A DNA stretch of 64,000 nt from Sorghum bicolor (Eukaryota; Streptophyta; Magnoliopsida; Poales; Poaceae), in NCBI RefSeq assembly GCF_000003195.3, contig NC_012878.2, positions 17,336,641 through 17,400,640 on the forward strand. The letters are read 5' to 3'. Below the pieces are notes generated by a model. That model saw only the letters and a program-made list of their open reading frames with translations, made no database searches and was not told the origin of the DNA. Within the stretch, counting starts at the first letter, position 1, and the number at the start of each line of letters is the position of its first letter. The position numbers and the translations under genes were made by a program. Shown here in pieces: positions 15,954-33,456 of this stretch.

Positions 15954-18933
15954 ATGGCGAAGAGCGACTCCAAGAAAAGGGCCGAATTGATGGCCAGGGA
16001 GTGGAAAAAGTCCCGCAGCACCACCAAGTCCCTCGGTGACCTCGTCGAAATGGGACTCCTGCATAGGTCGGAGCTCGGCGGCTGGAGAGCGCCGGAAGGG
16101 GAGAGCTTCCCCGACCCTCGTGCCGGTGAGATCGTCGTGTTCGAGGATTTCATTAAGAGGAGCTTTGGGGTTCCTGTTCATCCCTTTCTTCAAGGTCTTC
16201 TTTTGTATTATGAGATCGGGATTTGCAATCTGCACCCGAACTCAATTCTCCTTATCTCCACTTTTATCCATCTGTGCGAGGCCTATGTTGGTATAGAGCC
16301 GCACTTCGATCTTTTTCGTTATCTTTTCTGCTTGAGGAAGAAGGGAGCGGTTGGAGGCTCCAAGGTTGCAGGTGGAGTATACCTCAACCTTCGTGATGGA
16401 ATGAAGAACCGCTACCTGCACTGTCCATGGAACACTTCCTTGACCGAATGGTATAGGAAGTGGTTTCACATCAGGGAGGAACCGGGCAGCTCCACGTTCT
16501 GCGACGTGGGATACATTCCTGAGAAGAGGGTAAGCTGGACCGACCGCCCGGAGTTCGACGGTCAAGTGGCCGATCTCATGAAGCTGATCGACTGGTCGCG
16601 CCTGGACGGGCTTGGCGTGGTCGGCAACTTCATTTGTCGTCAGGTGATGCCCTGCCAGAAGAGGGTGCACTCGGCGTACGAGTATGCCGGAAGCGTGGAC
16701 CCGACCAGGATGCGACCGGAGATCTTGGAGAAGGCGGAGGTACAGCAGCTGTTGAACGAGCTGTTCAACTTCGCGGACGGAGGCTTCATCCGTGGCAGTG
16801 ATCGGGTGCAAGCCTTCATGTTAGGATGACCAGCACCAAATGTATGTTGCAGATTATTTTGTTCTAGCATTTGTATATTGTCTGCAGCTGACTCATCTTT
16901 GTTGCTTTTGCAGATCGGCGATGTCGACCGGTGCACAGTGTATATATCACTGGCACCGGGGATGGAGAATCCTGCGGGAGAAGTCCCGCCAGAGGAGGAC
17001 GCTGCTCGGTGTACTCATTACACCAGCAGTGAGGAGGAACAAGCTCGCCTTTCCCAACCACCGAGGAAAGGGTGGTGGGGAAAAGGCCAATGCCTGCGGA
17101 TCCGTCGCCGGCGGCGACACTGCCGGCAGAGAGCAGCCAAGCGCCGAAGCGCCGTCGGCTCGTGCGGATTGTTGACGACGACGACGACGAGGAGGCCGCA
17201 CCGTCGCTAGTTCGACGTCCTCGGAGCCGCCCAGATAGTGCACCGGCCACTACTGATCGGATGGCCAGCGACCCTCCTGCACCGCGCGTTGTCGAGATGG
17301 GAGCGCAGGTGCTAGTTGGCCGGACGAGGAGGAGGTTCACCGCGACCCACCGTCGATCGGACCTGTAAGTGTTCGAATTACGTATTTTGGCATTTGTTTT
17401 TTTATTATACTTTTGTTCTTTTAGCGCGGCGTCGGATGTCAACCCCGGCCATGCCACCGGCCAGGGGACGGGTGAGCCTGCCTGCGCTGCTGAAGATGCG
17501 GCGCCGCAGACCACGGAGCAGCCTGCGGCTGCAGCTGTGCCTGTGAGCACCGAGGAGCCCCCTGCCGCGGCACCGACCACGGCGAGCAGCCCGGCCAGGG
17601 CTGAGGAGGCTACAGGGGCACCTCCCCCAGCGAACGCCACAGAAAGGGAGGGGAGAGCCCCAACCCCTCCTCCCGCCGAGCAAAGCGAAGTCCCCACGCC
17701 GCCCCGAGCAGGGGCCGCTTCGACTGCTGGATCCCCGGGTCTGGCCCGGGGGCCAGTAATGCCTTCGACTGCTACCGGGGGCAATACGACGGTTGAGGAG
17801 GAAACCCAGGCAGCCTCCGACGACGAGGTGGAGGAGATTGAAGGTCGTCCCCGCGATGGCCGCCAACACGTGTATGTGTGGCGCCAACGCAGGGATCACT
17901 TCATCGGGCATGAGGAGCTCGCCGAGACCGAGGAGGCTGCCAGGGTCGAGCGCGCGGCCAAACGCCTCGTCGATGAAGTCAAGGTAAGCGGTTCTTTGCG
18001 CTATTGTACATTCTGTGCGTTGTCTTGCTTGGTTGTCATATGTTCTTTTTGTAGGGCGCGATGAAAACGGCGAAGTACCGGAAACGGTGCTTCGACCAGA
18101 TAGAAGGCGTTGTGGCCGAGAACAAGGCCCTGGCCGCGGAGGTGGACCGGCTGCGATCGGAGGTTGGGGAGAAAGTGGCCGAGATGAATGCCCAAGAGGA
18201 GCATCGTCTCGAGCTTACCCGTCGCTTGGCCGACCAGTAACGTCAGCGAGAAGGTTAGTCACGTGCTCCGAGCACCTGCGTGTATCTGTGTAGTTTGCTT
18301 TGCTGACCAGGTTATGATTTATTTAGACCTAGAGGAGGAGGTGACGTGCCTCCGGCAGGAGAAGGAGCAGCTCAGCCAAGAGCTCGCTGGTGCGCTGGAG
18401 TCCGGGCGTCGAACAGGAGAGGAGTTGGGTCGTAAGAACCGGGAGTTATCTGGTAATACGCATCGCCTCGTTATCTGCCCCTTGTCACCCCATTTGTCTT
18501 TTGATATGTCGAAGATAACTTCCTGCTTTGAATTGCAGTGCTCAAGGTGAACGCCAAGAAACACCTGGATGAGCTGGTCAAGGACCGGGACTCCTGGAAG
18601 GTCAACTGTTGTAAGATCTGGAAGGGAGTATCCCCGGTCCTTGATCTGATCAGTCCCAAGCTCCCGGAGAGCCAGCCCCGCGCGCCGAAGTTGACTCCGG
18701 TGGAGAAGGCGCAACGGGCGTGGGACTGGCTCCCGCAATTTGTGAAGGACGCTGGGGAGTTCGCTGGCGCGCATGTCCTTAGCATGGTGCGCGCCCACTA
18801 CCCCCTGGTCGACTTGTCCAGGCTGGAGAAGGGGTACCCCAAGGAGGTCGGCCCGCAGGAGGCATACGAGCTTCGGGGTGGTCTGTTGGACTTGTCGTCG
18901 ATGGTGATCGGCGACATCAATCTGTGCGGAACG
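15954..18933 (+). pseudogene. Antisense extra gene of Tat element F, exons 1-6
   Basis: This plus-strand gene is opposite to its host element. Exon 1 (15954-16841) encodes the plant gypsy-type transposon domain (PF04195-like; HPFLQGLLLYYEIGICNL and FIHLCEAYVGIEPHFDLFRY). Predicted exons 2-6 start at 16914, 17425, 18055, 18327 and 18539, each bounded by GT-AG introns with matching phases. Exons 2-3 give a disordered Ala/Pro-rich part with an acidic DDDDDEE patch; exons 4-6 give coiled-coil helices. Breaks: TGA at 16827-16829 (probably an old CGA), a frame change near 17045-17070, and TAA at 18238-18240. Exon 6 is cut at 18933 by element G and resumes at 33457. Role unknown; similar antisense ORFs are reported in Tat elements. 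Confidence 0.8.
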
Positions 18934-21900
18934 TGTAACACCCTAGGTGTTAAGCATGCACTTAGTCTCACCAAAGTCATGCATAATCATTTCCATCAAG
19001 CATAAGCATCATGAGCATGACACTCTTTTCAAATTATGATTTTATGTGCTTCATTTCATGTGCTTTAATTATGTTAAAAATGTGATGCTTGTTTCTAAAA
19101 TTGTGAAATATTCAAATTAGGTTGCTTTATGTGTAAGAAGAATTAAAAACATTTTTGTGCAATTTTTGGAGCTATGGAATTTGAGAAATGGAGTTTATAC
19201 AAACTTTTCCAAAATGAATTTATTTAAAACCTAGAGCTGAGTTTTAACTTGTAATTCAAATTTTGTTTGGAATTTGGTCTTGCTTGTCAAATCAAAGTTG
19301 TAGAGTTTTTATTTTGGAACAACTTTGTTTTTGGGAGCAAGAGGTGAAAATGATTTTAAATTGGTCCAAATGAATTTAGAAAGAATTTTGAGAAAAGAAA
19401 TTCAAAAAAAAAAGAGAAGGGGGCAGGCGCTGCTGGGCCAACCCCGCTTCCCTTTCGGCCTACCAAGCGACCCGGCCTGCCTCCCCTCTCCCTCTCCCTC
19501 CCGCGCGCGGACGCGCCTCGCTCCACCCGGCGCCGGCCACGTGGCGGCCGTACGCCGGCGTTGGACGTGCCGCGGCCGGCCTCCAACCCCCCCTGGTCGG
19601 GACGCCGGCGCAGGCTCCCAGACCATTTCGCCCGTTCTGTCCCCCGCGCCCTCCTTCTCCTTCCTCCTCCGCTCGCACCACGCAGCAGCAGCCGCTCCTC
19701 CGCGCGCCATTGCCGGAGAGAGCTCCGCCGCTCGTCGTCGGCCACACCAGAGCCTCAAGCTCGACGCCGAGAGCACCAGGGCACTCGCCGTCGCTAGGGT
19801 AAGCTCGTGCGAACGTTCTACCGAGGTGAGAGTCCGTCGAGCACCGTGAATCGCTCGTCGGAGTTACCCCGAGCTCGCCGGAGTACTCAGCCGCGGCGGA
19901 TCTAGCGTTTCCCTGCGTCTTTTCGCTCGTTCTCTGTTGCGCTAGGTCGGTAGGAAGGTGAGGAAGCTCGGAGAGGCGTTTGCGTACGCTCTACCGCGCC
20001 GGAGCAGCCTGGCCACGGCGAGCAGCGCCGCCGTACCGCCATGCATGCTCGCCGGAGGTGTTCCGACCGCCCTCTGGTCGATCCAAGGGTACCGTTGGGT
20101 GCGTCTTGCTGCGGGGAGCACGTTGGTGCTCACCCCGTGGCCGGAGACCTCACCGCCGGCGAGATCCGCTCGTCGGAGGTGAGCTCCCTCTCGGTCTCGC
20201 TGACTGGTGGGGTCGGGGACCCACTGTCAGTCGCAGGGGTACCCCGGTGGGTGTAGATCTGGGTGTGCGTAGCGTTTTTCGTCGGTTTTCTTGAAAAAGT
20301 GTTTTCCAGAAATTGATTTAAAGTTTGTAAAATCTATATCTTGAGTTCTACAGCTCCAAATTGAATGAAATAAATTTTGGTGTGCTCTATATTTCCAGAT
20401 CTACAGTTTGATGTAATTGCATGTCATGTTGGAGCAACTTTTCTGTGTGAATATATTTTATCCATGATTTTGTTAAACTTGGAAAATGCATAGTAAATGA
20501 AATATGGCTCAGAAAAATGTGAAACTTGTTTTGCTGGCTCTGCATGTGTGTTTAATCACTGAGAAAATATTGTTACATATTATTTGGTGTATAAATGAAT
20601 TTATGGTAATTTAAATGCTTGCATGGCAGTGCTTTATGATTTTTAATAATTAAATGGGTCATGCAATAAATCTGGAAAATTTTGTGGGTATTTCTTATGA
20701 TATTAGATAAATTGTAAAAATATGAAATCTGTTGTTTGACACTTATATCACAGTAGGGTGATTATACTTGCCTTATCCATTAATCTTGTGATTTTTGTGG
20801 CTCAAAATAAGTAACCAAAAATTATGAAAAATTTACAGTAGACTTTATGATTAGCTAGTAGTCTCCTGTAATTTTTCTGGAATTTATTGATGAACAGAAT
20901 TGCATGTGATTTTTTTAATGGGCTTAGAAATGAATAAAGAAAATTATGAATGGTTGTGTATGTGGGTTGAATGGACTAAGTTGGGTTTGGTGTATCTTTG
21001 AAGCATCATGTAGGTTGCGGATTTCATTTGAAAAATAATTATAGAAGAGAATGTAATAGATGTTTGATTCAATTGTTTATTCTTGGATGATGTTGACTAC
21101 CTTGTAATAAGCATGACCAAGTGCATTACCTATGCATCATAACATGACTCCTTTGGTACTCCCTCATGTAAGCATCCACTCGGGCATCTCGCACTCCACT
21201 CATGAGCATGTATGCATCATACAGGCTCGCAGGAGAATGAGGTGGGAACCGAGGAACCCGAGGAGCTTCAGGAGCAGGAACCTCCGGAAGCACAGGAACC
21301 CGGAGAGGAATTGCAGGAGTGTCCGGATCACCGACCCAGCACGTTTGAGAAAGGCAAGCTCCGGAGCATTCTAAGTCTCCCTATTCTCGCTAACTTATAT
21401 AAAGTGCTATACTTGTTCCACTGTATTGCATATTAAGTGATAGGAGTTGCCTGATACCGTTGCTGCATGAGTACTCCTTGTTATTCCTACTCATTCAACT
21501 ACCTTGTCCTATGTAGATAGTCACGGAGTCTATGCTTAGCTTGCTTAGTTCGGTAGAAGTCGGGTGATTCCCTGTCACCTGCGAGATATAGGTGGATACC
21601 TGCTTGATTAAGCTTTGGTTGCTCGGGGAAAAGAATAACCAAGTGTGGAACGAATTTGGAGACCGGGCGGGGTCTCATGGTGGGATGACCACGGTGCCCC
21701 TGCCTGTGTCGATTAAGGACCGATCGTTGACGGCCCTCTTGTCTTGTTGAACGGATGCCCCACACTTAGCTGGAAGGATAAGTCGTTCCGACCACGAAGC
21801 CTGAACACTATCCGGGCCGGGAATCGAGCCGCCATGCGCTGTATTGGTGATGGTTGAGGAGAACGACGAGGGCGCGGCGCGCAACCTTGGTATACCTTGG

Positions 21901-22859
21901 ATACCTCGGTCGCCGGAACGGTCCTCGGGTACTGGCGGTGCCTGCCGAACCCGCGAATTGGTCCTGGATAGTGTAATACGGTGATCTGTAGCTCACTTGA
22001 TCAGTGAGTGTGGTTTGTGTGGGGAATACCTCGCCAGCTGGTTAGAAATCGATTCGAATCGCCATCGCTCCTGGATAGTGAGCACTTGACATGAGCTTCG
22101 TCCTCGTAGTAAGGACTATGGAACACTTGGGTTATAATGAAACGGGTTTATGACTGCTGTCATGAGGTACTATCATAGTCTCATACTTGCTTGTAATAGC
22201 ACAGGAGCAAACCTAGATAATAGATAATGATACTTTCAACTTGATCAGATTAAAAGAAGAAAAGATTTATGTAGGTTTGGGTAATAAAACCTTGCGGTCT
22301 TTGCAAAATGGTTGTCAGCTACCCCACCAAATAGCCTTCATGATCCTTGATGAGTCTTTATTTTAAGTTTATGACGGGTAAGTCTAGCTGAGTACCTTCT
22401 CGTACTCAGGGTTCTATTCCCATATTGTTTTGCAGATGGTCAAATGTACTATGGTTATTGCATCCTCTGTCTGTACCCAGCTATGGGTGATAACTAGACC
22501 AAGGGCGATGGTCACTCCGTCTCTTCTTTTGCTTTTGTGGGAATGACCGAACTATGGCACTGTATCAGACTTATCGTGTGTATTGTAATTTCGGACTATG
22601 AAGCTTCCGCTACTTGAAGAACTTGGTTTGTAATAACTTTAAGCACTCCGATGTATTTTATGAATGTTGTAATCTGGATGTGCTTGTGGATGGCGACCGC
22701 TAAACTTATTACGATCTTGGCTGTATATGCGATGTGTGGTTTGAAATCCTTCGAGATTTCACGGACTACCGGGATTATATGGGCTTAAGCGTGATAGTTC
22801 GACTATGCAAATGGTCACTATTAGGCTTAATCTCTTATAATTTAGTCGGTTCTGTTACA
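18934..22859 (+). repeat. 5' LTR of element G
   Basis: 3926 bp. It has three parts: an AT-rich 5' part, a very GC-rich block at about 19425-20260, and a long AT-rich part to the end. TGTAACA/TGTTACA inverted ends. Short ORFs in the GC block occur in all frames and look like compositional artefacts. Confidence 0.95.
19425..21224 (+). promoter_or_regulatory. Possible 5' exon and intron inside the G LTR
   Basis: The GC-rich block ends with a strong splice donor (GCTAGG then GTAAGC, cut after 19798). After AT-rich, intron-like sequence comes an acceptor CATACAG at 21218-21224. The following 21225-21436 is an open frame rich in Glu/Pro (EEPEELQEQEPPEAQEP). The same sites are in the 3' LTR (about 30390 and 31816). 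This could be a leader exon plus intron of the element transcript; unproven. Confidence 0.3.
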
Positions 22860-22861
22860 GC

Positions 22862-22879
22862 TGGCATCGGAGCAAGGTT
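22862..22879 (+). promoter_or_regulatory. Primer binding site of element G
   Basis: TGGCATCGGAGCAAGG matches the complement of the tRNA-iMet 3' end (TGGTATCAGAGCATGG) at 13 of 16 positions, two bases inside the LTR. Confidence 0.75.
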
Positions 22880-23684
22880 TAGCGAGTTACTGTTCATAAG
22901 TACGTTTTAAACAAAAATCTAAACCGGTTTAGTAAAAGATTTTATTAATTAATTAATAATGATCAAGGTGTTAAACTAAGTTTTGGAAAAACTATCTAGT
23001 GTGCCATGGTCATATCCTTTATGCCCAGTTAAGGACTCTAAGGTGGCTAGCTAAGTACTGACTTGGGGGTTAATGCATCATATTTTTATTTCGTCGCTCA
23101 TACGGCGTGCAATAGTATGAGTGCCATTCATTTGAGTGGTAATGTATGGATCAATTCTTCTTCTACGCCATGGTAAGTGGGAGTTGTGAGAGCATGATCG
23201 GATACACTGCCGGTCTAGGGAAGTGTTGTCAGGTACTGTGTCATGCACACATGTTGGTGTGTCTTGGGAACAGTACCGCATGCTGGGAATTCCGTCCTGA
23301 GAGGCGATGCCGTCAAAAGGGCGATGATGTGGGTAGTGACACATCGCATGCATGGACGGGTGTCTGTGTGTGCGAAGTGCCTAGTTTTAAATTCCTATTC
23401 TGCACGATCATACTGTGGGTGGGCTGAAATGAGTTTCTGCAGGTATCATAACCACGTTCTTGCTTAGAACGCTAGTTACGTTATGGGAGAACGTTGTGTG
23501 CCACCGCATATACCGCCTAGTGTTAAACTTTGTTTTCTAAGTTTGTGAGATCGTAAGTTCGTGCATGCATCATGTTCATTTCATATCATTGCTTACTTTC
23601 CCCCTTAATTTAATCTGTCCCAATTCTAAATAAAATAATTAAAGGTAATCCTCGCTCTTACCCACGGTATTCCATTTGCAGCAG
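22880..23684 (+). other. Leader of element G
   Basis: No conserved gene is visible. It ends in a pyrimidine-containing stretch and ATTTGCAG just before the start codon of the extra ORF, which looks like a splice acceptor. Confidence 0.55.
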
Positions 23685-24728
23685 ATGGCACGCACTAGGC
23701 TCACCGCTCGCAAGTCCACTGGTGGGCGGGCCCCTTGCCGTCAGTTGGCAGCTAGGAGCTCGCGACATAAGAGCAAGTTCCTAGAGGAGTTTTGGATGCC
23801 CACTTTGCTTTGGAGGGTGCTCAGTTCGATGGGGTATCCCGAAGGAAGGGAGCCTCGCTACTATTGGGATAAGGAGCCGCTTGGGGATGAGACCCTGGTG
23901 GGGATCGAGGCAGTTGTCCCTACCAGTGGAGGAGACCCTGCTTGGGGCGGTTGGGTGTACGAGTCCCGAGGTGCCACGCCTTTCCACGGTGCCAGCAGGG
24001 CAGCTTTCGCAGTTTTGAGGGACCTCATGGAGAGGTTTCCACAGGAGCTGGCCCACGCCTTCGCTGGGGTGTTTCCCCGGGGTGACCCTTACACTTCGGT
24101 GTGGGATCAGTCCGAGGTTAATGCTCTAGAGAGGAGTGCGAATGAGGACCAGCACAGTGACAGTGCAGCTATGAGTGCCATGTACGCGTTGATGAAGACC
24201 TATGGAGGCCTGGAGCGTTGTTTAGGTCGCTTGTCCGGGTCTCTTCTCACCGTCCAGGATGAGAAGCGTCAGTTGCAGCGTGAGTTTGACTCTGAGGTTG
24301 AGAGGCTACAGGCAGAGTTGGCTCGTGTGACCAGAGAGAGAGACCAGGCAGTCCAGAAGAACAGTGAGCTGAGTCAGGACCTGCTTGCAGCACGGGAGCA
24401 GAAGGACAGGGTGACTACTGCTCACAGGAACTGCGAGCGCATGCTAGTCCATGTGCTTGGACAGAGGAATGAAGCCTGGCACGAGGAGGACACTTTGAGG
24501 GCCCGACAGCTAGAGCTAGAGCAGCAGCTAGCTAATGCCGAGGAATACAATGAGAACTTGCATGAGGAGATCCACCAGCTGCATAACCAGCTCCACCCTC
24601 ACCACCTGCCTGGAGCAGCGGAGCTAGACTCTGAGGACGAGATGGACGCGGATCCCGAGATAGGAGCAGCTGCTAGTGGTGATGAAGATGAGGATGGCTC
24701 CGGCATGGACAGTGACCACAGCGAGTAG
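23685..24728 (+). CDS. Extra ORF (orf0) with histone H3-like N-terminal tail
   Basis: An intact 347-codon frame upstream of gag. I choose ATG 23685 because it makes the protein begin MARTRLTARKSTGG, the position of the H3 start. Residues 2-30 align to the H3 tail: 17 of the first 26 are identical, Lys9-Ser10 and ARKSTGG are kept, and Lys4, 14, 18 and 23 are Arg. There is no histone fold. Residues about 33-165 are Trp/Gly-rich and probably globular; about 187-295 form a strong coiled coil; the last 40 are acidic (DSEDEMDADPE, GDEDEDGSGMD), like histone-chaperone tails. It is the only uninterrupted frame in G. An extra ORF before gag is known in related rice elements; its function is unknown. 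The tail suggests a chromatin or nucleosome-mimic role (inference). Confidence 0.85.
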   Translation: MARTRLTARKSTGGRAPCRQLAARSSRHKSKFLEEFWMPTLLWRVLSSMGYPEGREPRYYWDKEPLGDETLVGIEAVVPTSGGDPAWGGWVYESRGATPFHGASRAAFAVLRDLMERFPQELAHAFAGVFPRGDPYTSVWDQSEVNALERSANEDQHSDSAAMSAMYALMKTYGGLERCLGRLSGSLLTVQDEKRQLQREFDSEVERLQAELARVTRERDQAVQKNSELSQDLLAAREQKDRVTTAHRNCERMLVHVLGQRNEAWHEEDTLRARQLELEQQLANAEEYNENLHEEIHQLHNQLHPHHLPGAAELDSEDEMDADPEIGAAASGDEDEDGSGMDSDHSE

Positions 24729-25052
24729 ATGCTAGGGCTCTAGAGCTAGTCTTTCCTCTTTTGTGATGTATGTTGCGTGGCATGTCCTGTACTTTTGGAT
24801 CTGGGCTGTGTAAGACTTTATGAGTTGATGCTGAAAGTCCAGTGTATGTATGCTGGCAAGTTGGATGTACGCGAACCTTGTTGCGTGAATGTTAAGTAAT
24901 CTGTTAGTGATGTTGTGCGTGGATGATGAGTTGTTGTGCCTTTGTTTATCGTGTGAATTTATTCCCTCAGTAAATTCAGTATGGCACGATTTTACACATT
25001 TTCTACCGATTGATGGCAACTCCTAACGATTGCTTATCATTGGCGTATGCAG
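24729..25052 (+). other. Spacer between orf0 and gag of G
   Basis: 324 bp, T/G-rich, no gene. It ends TTGGCGTATGCAG directly before the gag ATG, again resembling a splice acceptor, which could yield a separate gag-pol mRNA. Confidence 0.5.
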
Positions 25053-26210
25053 ATGGTACAAACACGTGGCGGGGGTAACAGCAATCCGGGCCTTGGAGCA
25101 GGTACATCCGGAGGTGGGGCTCAACGGAATGAGGATAGAGCACCAACACCGCCACCACCACCGCCTCCCCCGTACACTGCGGATGTGTTTTTCGCGTAGT
25201 TTCTGGGAAGCCAACGCAACATGGAACAGATGCAGCGCAACATGGAAGAAGCTTTGCGCAACATAGCTGACAACACCCGTCGTGGAGATAATCAGGGTGG
25301 TCGGGAGGTCAACCAGTACAGTTCGTTCAAGGACTTCATGGATACCAAGCCACCAATCTTTAAGGAGGCCTTGGAACCGCTCGAAGCAGATGAGTGGATC
25401 AACACTATGGAGCAGAAGTTCTGTCTTCTCCGAATGACGGAAGAACTCAAGGCTGAGTATGCGGCACATCAGTTGCAAGGACCCGCTGGGATTTGGTGGT
25501 CCCATCACCGTACCACCTACCCAGAGGGGACACCAATTACCTGGAACCGCTTCACCACCGCTTTCCGGGGAAATTACATTCCTCCTGGTGTGGTTGAAAT
25601 GAAGGTTGGGGAGTTCATGAGGCTGTCCCAAGGGACGAAATCTGTGAAAGAGTATCTACATGCCTTCAATAATCTCGCTCGCTATGCCCCTGAGTTTGTG
25701 AACACGGAGGCCAAGAAGATTGCTAGTTTCCAGAGGGGCTTGAATCCAAAGATGCTGAAGACCATGGGTACAGGGGCCAGGGCTACTTTCAATGCCTATA
25801 TCAGTGACTGCCTGACCCAAGAGAACAATAACAACAACTACAGTGCATCCAAGTCACGTAAAAGGGCTTTTGAAGCAGGATCATCCCAGTCCAGGGCACC
25901 AGTGGCAGGGCGACAGCAGTATCGTCCTCCTGCCCCGGGTGCTAGGTTCCGACCACCGCAGAGAAGGAACACCGGGCATCCAACATAGCAGAAGCCGTAC
26001 AAGGTGGCGATAGCTCCTGCCAAGCCAAAGGCAATTCAAGCTGCAGCACCTGCCGTCAACAATGCGCCCAAGGGTCCGTGCTATAACTGCCACAAGATGG
26101 GGCACTTTGCTAAGGAATGTCCCTACCCCAAGAGGCAGCAGCCAACATATCCAGCTCGTGTGCATCATACCTCGATTGAGGAAATCCCGGAAGGAGAACC
26201 GGTAACAGCT
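25053..26210 (+). pseudogene. gag: Gag of element G
   Basis: Starts MVQTRGGGN at 25053. A Gly/Pro-rich N-terminus with eight consecutive prolines is followed by a TAG at 25197-25199. The Ty3/gypsy gag core follows (FKEALEPLEADEWINTMEQ, ITWNRFTTAFRGNYIPPGV, EYLHAFNNLARYAPEFV), then a basic Ser/Arg/Pro stretch, a second TAG at 25986-25988, and a CCHC zinc knuckle CYNCHKMGHFAKEC near 26081-26122. All pieces share one frame; both TAGs sit where a glutamine codon CAG is likely. It would make the particle and bind RNA. Confidence 0.88.
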
Positions 26211-28117
26211 GGTATGTTTTCTGTCAACCAACATCTTGCAGTTGTTTTGTTTGATTCTGGATCGTCGCATTCTTTCATGAGTCAAGCATTTGCACAAAAG
26301 CATAATCAACCAGTTACAGATCTGGGCTATGGCTACCGCATCAGCTCAGCAGGGGCAGATGTGTTGACCAATAGAGTGGTCCGAGGGGCAACCCTGGAGA
26401 TAAGTGGCCGAGTCTTTCGGGTAAATCTAGTGGTCATGCCTGGGTTAGTTTTGGATGTTATCATGGGCATGAAATGGATGAGAGAATGGGATGCGGTCAT
26501 AGATACTGGAAAGAGGATGTTATCTCTCAGAGAACCACAGGGCAGTAACTCTTTTCAAGTACCTCTGCCCCGTCGTCTTGACTTTGCTAGTATCTCCTGT
26601 GCTACGCACGTGGTCCCTTTACCATAGATCCCAGTGGTCTGTGAGTTCCCCGATGTGTTTCCCGAGGAGTTACCAGGACTTCCCCCAGATAGGGAGGTAG
26701 AGTTTGTAATCGAGTTGATACCAGGTACAACACCAATATCTAGAAGGCCGTACCGGATGCCACCAAACGAACTCGCAGAGTTGAAGAAACAACTGAAGGA
26801 GTTACTAGAAAAAGGGTTCATCCGGCCCAGCTCGTCGGAATGGGGTTGTCCAGCGTTGTTTGTGAAAAAGAAGGATCAGTCGTTGCGCATGTGCGTGGAC
26901 TATCGTCCACTCAATGCATTGACAATCAAAAATAAGTATCCCTTGCCAAGGATTGATATCCTGTTTGATCAGTTATCCAAGGCAAGAGTGTTCTCTAAGA
27001 TAGATTTGAGATCTGGGTAACACCAAATCAAGATTCGTCCGCAAGATATCCCGAAGACTGCTTTTTCCACCAGATATGGGTTGTACGAGTATCTTGTCAT
27101 GTCCTTTGGGTTGACAAATGCTCCTGCATACTTTATGTATCTGATGAATTCAGTCTTTATGCCAGAATTGGATAAGTTTGTTGTGGTGTTTATCGATGAT
27201 ATTTTGGTATATTCAGAAAATGAGCAAGATCACGCCGAACATCTGAGAATCGTGCTGACACGATTACGAGAGCATCAGTTATATGCCAAGTTTAGCAAGT
27301 GTGAGTTCTGGTTGAAGAAAGTTCCATTCCTAGGGCACATTTTGTCTAAAGAAGGGATTGCCGTAGATCCATCAAAAGTGCAGGAAGTCATGGACTGGAA
27401 GGCACCAACTTCTGTCTCGGAAGTTAGAAGTTTTCTTGGTCTGGCCGGGTATTATCGTCGTTTCATACCTGACTTCTCCAAGATTGCTAAGCCAATGACA
27501 AGTTTGCTACAAAAGGACCATAAGTTCGTCTGGACGGAAGGGTGTGAGTTAGCCTTCCGCACCTTGCGAAAGTTGCTAACCACTGCTCTCGTTCTGGCAC
27601 AACCTAATATAGAGAAGCCTTTTGATGTGTTTTGTGACGCATCGAAGAGTGGCCTGGGGTGTGTGTTGATGCAAGATGGCAGAGTGATAGCTTATGCTTC
27701 CCGACAGTTGAGAAAGCATGAAGTCAACTATCCAACGCACGACCTTGAGTTAGCAGCAGTGGCACATGCTTTGAAGATCTGGAGACATTATCTGCTAGGA
27801 AATAAGTGTCACATTTACACCGATCACAAGAGTTTGAAGTACATCTTCACTCAGTCTGAGCTGAATATGAGGCAACAACGGTGGTTAGAGCTAATCAAGG
27901 ATTATGACCTAGAAGTTCACTATCATCCAGGCAAAGCTAATGTGGTCGCAGATGCTTTGAGTCGCAAACCGCACTATCAAATGGTTCAACCGTTGTTTGA
28001 AGATGGGTTCAATCTTATGCATCCTGAGGTCTTATGTCATATACAACTCAGTTGTTCACTCGAGAGTCAAGTCATTGAAGGTCAGAAAACAGACAAGGGT
28101 ATTTTCCACATCAAAGA
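26211..28117 (+). pseudogene. pol: Protease, reverse transcriptase and RNase H of element G
   Basis: Same frame as gag. Protease: LFDSGSSHSFMS near 26248-26283. TAG at 26625-26627. [37 protein letters not shown] near 26890-26950, then TAA at 27018-27020 inside the DLRSGYHQ-type motif, and the catalytic FIDD near 27190. RNase [14 protein letters not shown] near 27630, TDHKSLKYI near 27820 and DALSRK near 27955. Replication would occur in cytoplasmic particles. The four stops in gag-pol (three TAG, one TAA) make this copy inactive. Confidence 0.88.
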
Positions 28118-29514
28118 GAAGACCCAAAGACTCAGTTTCGGGTTGATGAGAAGGGGGTACTGTGGTTTCAACAGCGGTTAGTGGTCCTGAAAGATCGGGA
28201 GTTGAAGAATCGCATCATGGATGAAGCCCATCTCTCTAAGCTTTCTATTCATCCTGGCAGCAGCAAAATGTATCAAGATCTAAGGCCCCACTTTTGGTGG
28301 ACCAAGATGAAGAAAGAAATAGCCGCTTATGTGGCCCGTTGTGACACGTGTTGCAGAGTTAAGGCCATCCATATGAAACCTGCAGGTCTGTTACAACCGT
28401 TATCAGTTCCAGAGTGGAAATGGGAAGAGGTCAGTATGGACTTTATCACCGGCTTACCGACAACCAGGAAGGGGAATGACTCGATTTGGGTAATCATAGA
28501 TCGATTAACCAAGTCGGCTCATTTCGTTCCAGTCAAGAACACATACAGACCTCCCGAGTATGCTGATATATATATGGCTGAGATCGTCAAATTGCATGGT
28601 ATTCCCAAAACTATCATATCGGATAGAGGACCGCAGTTCACTGCTCACTTCTGGGAGCGCATGCATAAGATTCTGGGACCAGTCTGATAAGAAGCACGGC
28701 GTATCATCCCCAGACTTCAGGTCAAACCGAGAGGCTAAATCAAGTGTTAGAAGATATGCTAAGAGCCTGTGTGCTATCATCCAGGGGATCGTGGGAATCA
28801 TGGTTACCTCTGGCTGAGTTCTCATACAATAATAGTTATCAAGAGAGCATCAAGATGGCCCCGTTCGAAGCTTTGTATGGGCGGAGATGTCGAACTCCGT
28901 TAAACTGGGTGGAACCTGGTGAAAGGAGATACTATGGTATCGACTTTGTGAATGATGCCGAGAAAAAGGTGCAGATTATACAACAACATATGCAAGCAGC
29001 ACAGTCACGACAGAAGAGTTATGCTGATAAGAGAAGAAGGCCACTTGAATTCAACATAGGTGACTATGTGTACCTCAAGGTTACGCCAATGAAGAAAGTT
29101 CAACGTTTCCGAGTTCGAAGCAAGCTTGCACCCAGATATGTGGGACCGTACCAAGTGCTAGAGAGGAAAGGCCCAGTGGCCTATAAGATTCAGTTACCTG
29201 AAGAGATGAGCTCGATCTTTCCGGTCTTCCATGTGTCGCAACTACGGAAATGTTTGAAAGTGCCTGAGCAAAGAATTGAACCCCGAGGGATCAAAATAAA
29301 AGCAGACTTAGAGTATAAAGAGCAGCCAGTGGGAATCGTGGATACCAAGGAGCGAGTAACCCAAAACAGAATTGTCAGAACATATAAGGTGGTGTGGAGT
29401 CATCATGACGATAGGGATGCCACCTGGGAAACAGAGGATTACTTAAAAACAGTTTACCCAAAGTTTCATAAGAAATGGTTAGTAACCCAAAATCTCGGGA
29501 CGATATTTCCCTAA
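28118..29514 (+). pseudogene. pol: Integrase with C-terminal chromodomain of element G
   Basis: A frame change near 28118 brings in the zinc-binding part (HLSKLSIHPGSSKM, CDTCC). The core keeps the first Asp (SMDFITGLP), the second (ISDRGPQF near 28617) and the Glu (TERLNQ near 28725); a second frame change lies near 28665-28675. The C-terminus (about 29370-29500) is a chromodomain (TYKVVWSHHDDRDATWETED), which in chromoviruses steers integration into heterochromatin by reading histone marks. The frame ends at a TAA by 29514. Confidence 0.88.
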
Positions 29515-29526
29515 GGGGGGAAGGGC
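29512..29526 (+). promoter_or_regulatory. Polypurine tract of element G
   Basis: TAAGGGGGGAAGGGC abuts the 3' LTR, a classical plus-strand primer. Confidence 0.92.
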
Positions 29527-32500
29527 TGTAACACCCTAGGTGTTAAGCATGCACTTAGTCTCACCAAAGTCATGCATAATCATTTCCATCAAGCATAAGC
29601 ATCATGAGCATGACACTCTTTTCAAATTATGATTTTATGTGCTTCATTTCATGTGCTTTAATTATGTTAAAAATGTGATGCTTGTTTCTAAAATTGTGAA
29701 ATATTCAAATTAGGTTGCTTTATGTGTAAGACGAATTAAGAACATTTTTGTGCAATTTTTGGAGCTATGGAATTTGAGAAATGGAGTTTATACAAACTTT
29801 TGCAAAATGAATTTATTTAAAACCTAGAGCTGAGTTTTAACTTGTAATTCAAATTTTGTTTGGAATTTGGTCTTGCTTGTCAAAGCAAAGTTGTAGAGTT
29901 TTTATTTTGGAACAACTTTGTTTTTGGGAGCAAGAGGTGAAAATGATTTTAAATTGGTCCAAATGAATTTAGAAAGAATTTGGAGAAAAGAAATTGAAAA
30001 AAAAAGAGAAGGGGGCAGGCGCTGCTGGGCCAACCCCGCTTCCCTTTCGGCCCAGCAAGCGACCCGGCCTGCCTCCCCTCTCCCTCTCCCTCCCGCGCGC
30101 GGACGCGCCTCGCTCCACCCGGCGCCGGCCACGTGGCGGCCGTACGCCGGCGTTGGACGCGCCGCGGCCGGCCTCCAACCCCCCCTGGTCGGGACGCCGG
30201 CGCAGGCTCCCAGACCATTTCGCCCGTTCTGTCCCCCGCGCCCTCCTTCTCCTTCCTCCTCCGCTCGCACCGCGCAGCAGCAGCCGCTCCTCCGCGCGCC
30301 ATTGCCGGAGAGAGCTCCGCCGCTCGTCGCCGGCCACACCAGAGCCTCAAGCTCGACGCCGAGAGCACCAGGGCACTCGCCGTCGCTAGGGTAAGCTTGT
30401 GCGAACGTTCTACCGAGGTGAGAGTCCGTCGAGCGCCGTGAATCGCTCACCGGTGTTACCCCGAGCTCGCCGGAGTACTCCGCCGCGGCGGATCTAGCGT
30501 TTCCCTGCGTCTTTTCGCTCGTTCTCTGTTGCGCTAGGTCGGTAGGAAGGTGAGGAAGCTCGGAGAGGCGTTTGCGCACGCTCTACCGCGCCGGAGCAGC
30601 CTGGCCACAGCGAGCAGCGCCGCCGTGCCGCCATGCATGCTCGCCGGAGGTGTTCCGGCCGCCCTCTGGTCGATCCAAGGGTACCGTTGGGTGCGTCTTG
30701 CTGCGGGGAGCACGTTGGTGCTCACCCCGTGGCCGGAGACCTCACCGCCGGCGAGATCCGCTCGTCGGAGGTGAGCTCCCTCTCGGTCTCGCTGACTGGT
30801 GGGGTCGGGGACCCACTGTCAGTCGCAGGGGTACCCCGGTGGGTGTAGATCTGGGTGTGCGTAGCGTTTTTCGTCGGTTTTCTTGAAAAAGTGTTTTCCA
30901 GAAATTGATTTAAAGTTTGTAAAATCTATATCTTGAGTTCTACAGCTCCAAATTGAATGAAATAAATTTTGGTGTGCTCTATATTTCCAGATCTACAGTT
31001 TGATGTAATTGCATGTCATGTTGGAGCAACTTTTCTGTGTGAATATATTTTATCCATGATTTTGTTAAACTTGGAAAATCCATAGTAAATGAAATATGGC
31101 TCAGAAAAATGTGAAACTTGTTTTGCTGGCTCTGCATGTGTGTTTAATCACTGAGAAAATATTGTTACATATTATTTGGTGTATAAATGAATTTATGGTA
31201 ATTTAAATGCTTGCATGGCAGTGCTTTATGATTTTTAATAATTAAATGGGTCATGCAATAAATCTGGAAAATTTTGTGGGTATTTCTTATGATATTAGAT
31301 AAATTGTAAAAATATGAAATCTGTTGTTTGACACTTATATCACAGTAGGGTGATTATACTTGCCTTATCCATTAATCTTGTGATTTTTGTGGCTCAAAAT
31401 AAGTAACCAAAAATTATGAAAAATTTACAGTAGACTTTATGATTAGCTAGTAGTCTCCTGTAATTTTTCTGGAATTTATTGATGAACAGAATTGCATGTG
31501 ATTTTTTTAATGGGCTTAGAAATGAATAAAGAAAATTATGAATGGTTGTGTATGTGGGTTGAATGGACTAAGTTGGGTTTGGTGTATCTTTGAAGCATCA
31601 TGTAGGTTGCGGATTTCATTTGAAAAATAATTATAGAAGAGAATGTAATAGATGTTTGATTCAATTGTTTATTCTTGGATGATGTTGACTACCTTGTAAT
31701 AAGCATGACCAAGTGCATTACCTATGCATCATAACATGACTCCTTTGGTACTCCCTCATGTAAGCATCCACTCGGGCATCTCGCACTCCACTCATGAGCA
31801 TGTATGCATCATACAGGCTCGCAGGAGAACGAGGTGGGAACCGAGGAACCCGAGGAGCTTCAGGAGCATGAACCTCCGGAAGCACAGGAACCCGGAGAGA
31901 AATTGCAGGAGTGTCCGGATCACCGACCCAGCACGTTTGAGAAAGGCAAGCCCCGGAGCATTCTAAGTCTCCCTATTCTCGCTAACTTATATAAAGTGCT
32001 ATACTTGTTCTACTGTATTGCATATTAAGTGATAGGAGTTGCCTGATACCGTTGCTGCATGAGTACTCCTTGTTATTCCTACTCATTCAACTACCTTGTC
32101 CTATGTAGATAGGCACGGAGTCTATGCTTAGCTTGCTTAGTTCGGTAGAAGTCGGGTGATTCCCTGTCACCTGCGAGATATAGGTGGATACCTGCTTGAT
32201 TAAGCATTGGTTGCTTGGGGAAAAGAATAACCAAGTGTGGAACGAATTTGGAGACCGGGCGGGGTCTCATGGTGGGATGACCATGGTGCCCCTGCCTGTG
32301 TCGATTAAGGACCGATCGTTGACGGCCCTCTTGTCATGTTGAACGCATGCCCCACACTTAGCTGGAAGGATAAGTCGTTCCGACCACGAAGCCTGAACAC
32401 TATCGGGGCCGGGAATCGAGCCGCCATGCGCTGTATTGGTGATGGTTGAGGAGAACGACGAGGGCGCGGCGCGCAACCTTGGTATACCTTGGATACCTCG

Positions 32501-33451
32501 GTCGCCGGAACGGTCCTCGGGTACTGGCGGTGCCTGCCGAACCCGCGAATTGGTCCTGGATAGTGTAATACGGTGATCTGTAGCTCACTTGATCAGTGAG
32601 TGTGGTTTGTGTGGGGAATACCTCGCCAGCTGGTTAGAAATCGATTCGAATCGCCATCGCTCCTGGATAGTGAGCACTTGACATGAGCTTCGTCCTCGTA
32701 GTAAGGACTATGGAACACTTGGGTTATAATGAAACGGGTTTATGACTGCTGTGATGAGGTACTATCATAGTCTCATACTTGCTTGTAATAGCATAGGAGC
32801 AAACCTAGATAATAGATAATGATACTTTCAACTTGAGCAGATTAAAAGAAGAAAAGATTTATGTAGGTTTGGGTAATAAAACCTTGCGGTCTTTGCAAAA
32901 TGGTTGTCAGCTACCCCACCAAATAGCCTTCATGATCCTTGATGAGTCTTTATTTTAAGTTTATGACGGGTAAGTCTAGCTGAGTACCTTCTCGTACTCA
33001 GGGTTCTATTCCCATGTTGTTTTGCAGATGGTCAAATGTACTATGGTTATTGCATCCTCTGTCTGTACCCAGCTATGGGTGATGACTAGACCAAGGGCGA
33101 TGGTCACTCCGTCTCTTCTTTTGCTTTTGTGGGAATGACCGAACTATGACACTGTATTAGACTTATCGTGTGTATTGTAATTTCGAACTATGAAGCTTCC
33201 GCTACTTGAAGAACTTGGTTTGTAATAACTTTAAGCAGTCCGATGTATTTTATGAATGTTGTAATCTGGATGTGCTTGTGGATGGCGACCGCTAAACTTA
33301 TTACGATCTTGGCTGTATATGCGATGTGTGGTTTGAAATCCTTCGAGATTTCACGGACTACCGGGATTATATGGGCTTAAGCGTGATAGTTCGACTATGC
33401 AAATGGTCACTATTAGGCTTAATCTCTTATAATTTGGTCGGTTCTGTTACA
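29527..33451 (+). repeat. 3' LTR of element G
   Basis: 3925 bp, about 1.1 % different from the 5' LTR by my count. Followed by the TSD copy GAACG and the rest of exon 6 of the F antisense gene. Confidence 0.95.
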
Positions 33452-33456
33452 GAACG

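What the first reader, a model, noticed from the sequence alone, without database searches (positions are those of the whole stretch)
23685..24728. Retrotransposon protein that begins with a histone H3 tail mimic
Seen: the intact orf0 of element G starts MARTRLTARKSTGG. Numbered as in H3, residues 1-3, 6-13, 15-16, 19-21 and 26 are identical (17 of the first 26). K4, K14, K18 and K23 are all replaced by arginine while K9-S10 is kept. After residue 30 there is no histone fold but a globular part, a coiled coil and an acidic tail. Known: H3K9 methylation marks plant heterochromatin and is read by CMT3/SUVH and chromodomain proteins. Inference: the tail could be methylated at the K9 equivalent and bait silencing readers, or help the particle bind chromatin. 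It is the only unbroken frame in G.
Basis: partly seen in the sequence, partly recalled or inferred. Interest (0 to 1): 0.87.

Follow-up and report, generated by a model that had tools for sequence, protein, structure and literature searches.

The report
Jumping gene wearing a histone tail
A common family of grass jumping genes makes an extra protein that begins with a near copy of the tail of histone H3, kept by selection while the rest changed, which suggests these elements imitate the very flag that plants use to silence them.

The parts
18929..18933 (.). 5' target-site duplication GAACG
   Evidence: matches GAACG at 33452-33456
18934..22859 (+). 5' LTR of element G (TGTAACACCC...GTTACA)
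   Evidence: 98.85% identical to the 3' LTR over 3927 columns; ends set by TG..CA and duplication
23673..23684 (+). splice-acceptor-like CATTTGCAGCAG directly before the orf0 ATG
   Evidence: seen in sequence; AG also stands at or one base before the ATG in the other two families of this genome (TTTCTGACAG, CCCTCTACAGG); splicing itself not tested
23685..24728 (+). orf0, 347 aa, intact
23688..23756 (+). histone H3 tail mimic, residues 1-23 after the initiator Met
23790..24050 (+). dsRBD-like domain, model residues 36-122 (a-b-b-b-a), full RNA-binding KKxAK motif absent
24165..24593 (+). long helix/coiled coil, residues 161-303
   Evidence: block pLDDT 86-97 from residue 181 to 300
24594..24725 (+). 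low-confidence acidic C-terminal end
   Evidence: sequence; low pLDDT
25053..29514 (+). gag-pol, broken by an early in-frame stop in gag and frame changes in pol; pieces match Retrotrans_gag, zf-CCHC, RVP_2, RVT_1, RT_RNaseH, Integrase_H2C2, SH3_Tf2-1, and rve below its cut-off
   Evidence: pieces searched apart
29335..29475 (+). chromodomain-like stretch at the integrase C-terminus
   Evidence: PF00385 E 0.0011, below Pfam's cut-off (19.3 against 25.1 bits)
29527..33451 (+). 3' LTR of element G
33452..33456 (.). 3' target-site duplication GAACG

Best explanation
SHOWN by sequence: orf0 of this Tekay-like retrotransposon family carries at its extreme N-terminus a copy of H3 residues 1-23, and selection has kept it while the rest of the protein changed more. 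SHOWN by prediction only: it is followed in long types by a dsRBD-like fold, then a coiled coil and an acidic end. INFERRED origin: capture of the first coding exon of an intron-bearing (H3.3-type) host H3 gene. INFERRED mechanism: after Met removal the protein presents a free A1-R2-T3-K4...R8-K9 tail in the nucleus, many copies per coiled-coil assembly. It acts as a decoy in the H3K9me2/CHG-methylation loop: substrate or bait for SUVH-type H3K9 methyltransferases and for K9me2 readers of the CMT3/ZMET2 type. The net effect would be local relief of transcriptional silencing, or chromatin association of the particle without feeding the silencing loop.
For: Tail in 60 of 168 database proteins fetched, 62 with G and L095. 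The other 108 begin inside or downstream of the tail region, except P0042 and P0142 (and a short lead in P0117), which have unrelated leading sequence (my reading), so they do not show tail loss. In 12 body clusters (<60% identity, or too little overlap to compare) K9, T6, P16, L20, A21 are 12 of 12, K4 and R8 10 of 12; K18, T22, K23 0 of 12 (read). Tail identity exceeds body identity in 52 of 52 comparable pairs of 66 (means 0.70 and 0.35). G against L095: tail dN 0.17, body 0.63; of 309 sliding 23-codon windows only the overlapping one from the Met has a lower pN. Third family: tail pN/pS 0.10-0.11, body 0.12-0.17 in three comparisons. In 60 distinct copies of the first two families K9 is 60 of 60 and R8 57 of 60. 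No recent recapture: the nearest of 8 distinct H3 tails of this genome differs from the five tails tested in 38-53% of the codons whose residue is identical. CMT3/ZMET2 binds H3 1-10 by BAH and 14-23 by the MTase allosteric loop; K18 readout is needed for activation, and R17, L20, T22 make contacts (PMC9256654 passages): the copied span covers that footprint, with L20 kept in 61 of 62, R17 in 42, and K18/T22 in 0 of 62.
Against: No binding, methylation, expression or localisation was tested; no transcript was seen. A7 is P in 34 of 62 and S10 is not S in 14 of 62, so the ARKS context of H3K9 enzymes is not intact in many GPKG-type sequences; K4 is R in 54 of 60 and Q19 is P in 49 of 60 sorghum copies of the first two families. 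Between G and the third family the tail is only 12 of 23 identical, pN/pS 0.44, so the tail is constrained but not frozen. Conserved positions include 16, 20, 21 and 23 and a family-specific PRHQLAPR, so selection is not purely for likeness to H3. Basic residues at 14 and 23 fit a nuclear-import explanation as well (PMC5677370). Database sequences are not independent and their species are mostly unnamed.
Confidence: 0.4

Rival explanations
1. The tail is a borrowed H3 nuclear-import signal: it recruits the importin that carries H3, with K14/K23 turned to R so that acetylation cannot switch import off.
For: Kap123 binds H3(1-28) through K14 and K23; K14R had only a minor effect on reporter import while K14Q reduced it strongly (PMC5677370 passages). 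In orf0, position 14 is K or R in 57 of 62 and position 23 is R in 58 of 62. Grass Tekay 5'aORFs were predicted nuclear (PMC11728184 section 9).
Against: In the crystal Kap123 orders residues 12-17 and 21-26; the near-invariant A1, K4, T6 and K9, and the start at Met-Ala, lie outside that footprint. Import signals rarely need non-basic residues kept in order (general knowledge).
Confidence: 0.3
2. The tail is a chromatin or chaperone handle: it docks orf0 on H3-tail-binding host proteins to tether the particle or RNA to chromatin for integration, without opposing silencing.
For: Same conservation data; the element also has a chromodomain-like integrase end; the dsRBD-like fold ranks first with protein-binding dsRBDs (DRB7.2, DCL4 dsRBD2, TRBP and Loqs dsRBD3, Staufen dsRBD5), which suggests a scaffold.
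Against: Does not by itself explain why K18 and T22 are never kept; Tekay chromodomains are reported to lack the cage (PMC3350952, PMC6317226 passages).
Confidence: 0.15
3. A passive relic: an H3 exon was captured once and persists by descent with no role of its own.
For: Capture by recombination or transduction is a proposed origin of extra ORFs (Steinbauerova 2011, recalled).
Against: Tail more conserved than the body in 52 of 52 pairs, low pN/pS; kept in short types that lack the dsRBD-like part.
Confidence: 0.05
4. orf0 is chiefly an RNA-silencing suppressor through its dsRBD, the tail being secondary.
For: dsRBD fold in two models; PMC11728184 suggests this for maize and sorghum aORFs.
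Against: The KKxAK motif is missing in 20 of 20 rows that cover the site, though P0009, P0010 and P0011 keep one of its lysines; no DRBM Pfam hit at E<=1; short types keep tail and coil but lack this domain.
Confidence: 0.1

Closest known systems
ORF0 / 5' additional ORF of grass Tekay (Del, RIRE3, Retrosat2, Sb7) retrotransposons
   Same: Position upstream of gag, long LTRs, chromodomain element, grasses; Retrosat2 ORF0 diverges faster than ORF1 (PMC3485330 passages); weak DRBM likeness reported for maize Tekay and sorghum Sb7 (TM 0.35-0.37; PMC11728184 section 9)
   Different: The word histone occurs in neither paper's main text; here the H3 tail, its boundary, conservation and lysine pattern are measured. 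I did not compare G with Sb7 or Retrosat2 sequences directly
Steinbauerova et al. 2011 (Genetica 139:1543), extra ORFs of Poaceae chromoviruses
   Same: Abstract as I recall it: part of these extra ORFs show partial similarity to a histone H3 gene, thought to come from transduction or recombination (paper not held; its existence confirmed by the citation)
   Different: As recalled, nothing on tail-only capture, K9/K18 pattern, selection or mechanism; I could not read it
Viral and cellular histone-tail mimics with ARKS/ARTK-like motifs (recalled)
   Same: Short H3-like lysine motif in a non-histone protein
   Different: Here about 23 residues at the true N-terminus, from a transposable element, in several families
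VANC anti-silencing proteins of Arabidopsis VANDAL transposons (PMC10398659, start of abstract)
   Same: Element-encoded protein that counteracts the element's own silencing
   Different: VANC is sequence-specific for its own element; no histone mimic known to me (recalled)

Membership tests
Histone H3 | N-terminal tail ARTKQTARKSTGG... | tested here: met
   17 of 26 identical, E 5.8e-6; a relative family has residues 1-13 exact
Histone H3 | histone fold | tested here: not met
   no histone Pfam match at E<=1; model shows dsRBD-like fold and coiled coil instead
Tekay-type chromovirus | gag-pol order ending in integrase with a C-terminal chromodomain | tested here: inconclusive
   gag, PR, RT, RH found above cut-off, integrase zinc-binding part above and rve below; Chromo E 0.0011 but under Pfam's cut-off
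Tekay-type chromovirus | 5' extra ORF upstream of gag and long LTRs, as in grass members | tested here: met
   orf0 at 23685, gag from 25053, LTR 3.9 kb
Tekay-type chromovirus | RT/integrase phylogeny | not tested
   no tree made
dsRBD (DRBM) domain | a-b-b-b-a fold | tested here: met
dsRBD (DRBM) domain | RNA-binding KKxAK at helix 2 | tested here: not met
   absent in 20 of 20 rows covering the site (3 of 23 rows do not); P0009, P0010, P0011 keep one lysine of it
dsRBD (DRBM) domain | Pfam profile match | tested here: not met
   no DRBM family at E<=1 for the window protein or P0011
Functional histone mimic | tail is modified or bound by H3 writers/readers | not testable with these tools
   no binding data
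Functional histone mimic | mimic region under purifying selection | tested here: met

The most novel reading that the evidence does not exclude
A whole clade of grass retrotransposons encodes a built-in antagonist of chromomethylase: an H3(1-23) tail copy that keeps the K9/1-10 docking half and L20 (mostly R17) but has lost K18, T22 and K23 in every sequence seen, so that it occupies CMT3/ZMET2 (and H3K9 methyltransferases) without activating them, displayed in many copies on a coiled-coil scaffold.
Probability: 0.2. Interest if true: 0.93.

Novelty: new variant of a known kind. Interest (0 to 1): 0.74.

Why it matters
If true, transposons would be shown to fight H3K9me2/CHG silencing by imitating the histone tail itself, in high copy number, and would supply natural variants of the H3 tail that tell which residues the plant silencing machinery reads. 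It makes directly testable how Tekay-like elements became so abundant in grass genomes despite CMT3/SUVH silencing. Even if the tail turns out to be an import signal, it would be a rare case of a host exon captured by an LTR retrotransposon and kept by selection.

Full report
What is there. Element G runs 18934-33451 with a GAACG target duplication and 3.9-kb LTRs 98.85% identical (about 0.44 million years at 1.3e-8 per site per year, a rate I recall), a broken gag-pol and one intact frame, orf0, 23685-24728.

The first 26 residues after Met are identical to H3 at 17 positions, and phmmer finds H3 from the first 40 residues at E 5.8e-6. The ATG is the first in frame after a stop. In the second family a stop lies two codons upstream of the ATG in the four loci printed; in the fifth (L095) the stop is further up with no ATG between. 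So the H3-like residues can only be N-terminal, as in H3.

It is a family trait. A DNA search of the genome scored 40 of 886 candidates. A protein search with a 52% identical relative scored 123 of 3151, of which 19 listed rows carry stops by my count; only best candidates are scored, so this is not a census. Of the loci then held, 65 had an ungapped aligned orf0 start, 60 of them distinct (by residues 4-5, 55 of G's family and 5 of the second): K9, T6, T11, G13, A15, P16, L20 and R23 60 of 60, R8 57, R2 56; two copies carry a stop within the first 30 codons. Loci without an aligned start, or with gaps in the first 111 columns, were left out.

A second, deeply diverged family in the same genome (body about 40% identical) begins MARTKQTARKSTGGRAPRGQLAPR: H3 residues 1-13 exactly, 19 of 23 overall. 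A third family (150 matches listed with query P0050 from 2644 candidates; six read) is short, lacks the globular part and begins MARQKQTPRKRTGPKGVPRHQLAPR or a close variant. Database searches (the last listed 120 of 147) brought 168 proteins, of which 60 show the tail by my threshold of 6 matches in H3 1-13; with the window copy and L095 that makes 62. The other 108 mostly lack the N-terminus.

Conservation. Across the 62: K9 61, P16 61, L20 61, T6 60, K4 59, A1 58, A21 58, R23 58; K18 0 (H 55, R 6, G 1), T22 0 (P 54), K23 0; K14 is K in 36 and R in 21. R2, R8 and R17 losses are mostly to H or C, as expected from CpG decay of dead copies (inference). A7 is P in 34 and S10 is S in 48. Twelve representatives give 52 comparable pairs of 66: the tail is more alike than the body in 52 of 52, means 0.70 and 0.35. 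Codon comparison of G with L095 gives tail dN 0.17 and body dN 0.63 with near-saturated dS; of 309 sliding 23-codon windows only the overlapping one beginning at the Met has a lower pN. Within the third family tail pN/pS is 0.10-0.11 and body 0.12-0.17 in three comparisons, so the whole orf0 is under purifying selection there. Against this, tails of G and the third family share only 12 of 23 residues (pN/pS 0.44): the constraint is on certain positions, not on the whole string.

Origin. In three intron-bearing H3 genes of this genome the H3 reading stops after the K23 codon at AAG|GT, and in one an apparent intron ends ...TAATGCAG directly at the ATG (boundaries inferred, not annotated). The orf0 tail begins after a similar AG and its shared H3 likeness ends at residue 23; residues 24-30 differ between families. 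I infer capture of a first coding exon, perhaps with its acceptor. None of the five tails tested is a recent copy.

How it may work. PMC9256654 (passages): ZMET2/CMT3 binds H3 residues 1-10 through its BAH domain and residues 14-23 along the methyltransferase allosteric loop; K18 is recognised and needed for activation, with R17, L20 and T22 in contact; a 1-17 K9me2 peptide does not appreciably stimulate. The orf0 tail covers just this span, keeps most of the first half and L20 (R17 in 42 of 62), and never has K18 or T22. Hence the decoy proposal: dock without activating. PMC5677370 (passages) supports the main rival: H3 import by yeast Kap123 uses K14 and K23, tolerates K14R, and is weakened by acetyl-mimics; orf0 has K/R at 14 in 57 of 62 and R at 23 in 58 of 62. 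Both could be true: 14 and 23 for import, 1-10 for imitation. The near-invariant K9, K4 and T6 are what import alone does not explain.

Priority. PMC3485330 (passages) describes grass ORF0 of Retrosat2 relatives; the word histone does not occur there, nor in PMC11728184 or PMC7264820. Steinbauerova et al. 2011 (Genetica) reports, as I recall its abstract, that part of the Poaceae chromovirus extra ORFs resemble a histone H3 gene; it is not held. So the bare resemblance is probably known; the tail-only boundary, the selection evidence, the lysine pattern and its fit to CMT3 readout I did not find in ten searches (listed under Tried and rejected).

Noticed in passing
window 23673-23684 and 25040-25052: Splice-acceptor-like sequences (TTTGCAGCAG, TATGCAG) stand directly before both the orf0 ATG and the gag ATG, as if each ORF were reached by splicing; orf0's is a tandem NAGNAG.
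   Followed up: partly
L096-L101 (G000, e.g. C3:29650046): A third family of this genome has a short orf0: H3-like tail with Q/W at 3, P at 7 and R at 10, plus coiled coil, no dsRBD-like part; 150 matches listed from 2644 candidates.
   Followed up: partly
P0042 (Miscanthus floridulus): A predicted protein joins an integrase-like piece to the C-terminal coil and acidic end of an orf0, apparently a gene-model fusion.
   Followed up: no
G000:C4:27028537 (L069): A copy of G's family has a 173-aa orf0 with an internal deletion from within the dsRBD-like part to mid-coil, still in frame.
   Followed up: no
G000:C7:10709580 and C7:10720212: Neighbouring orf0 hits 10.6 kb apart, close to the element's LTR-to-LTR spacing of 10,593, suggest tandem elements sharing an LTR.
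   Followed up: no
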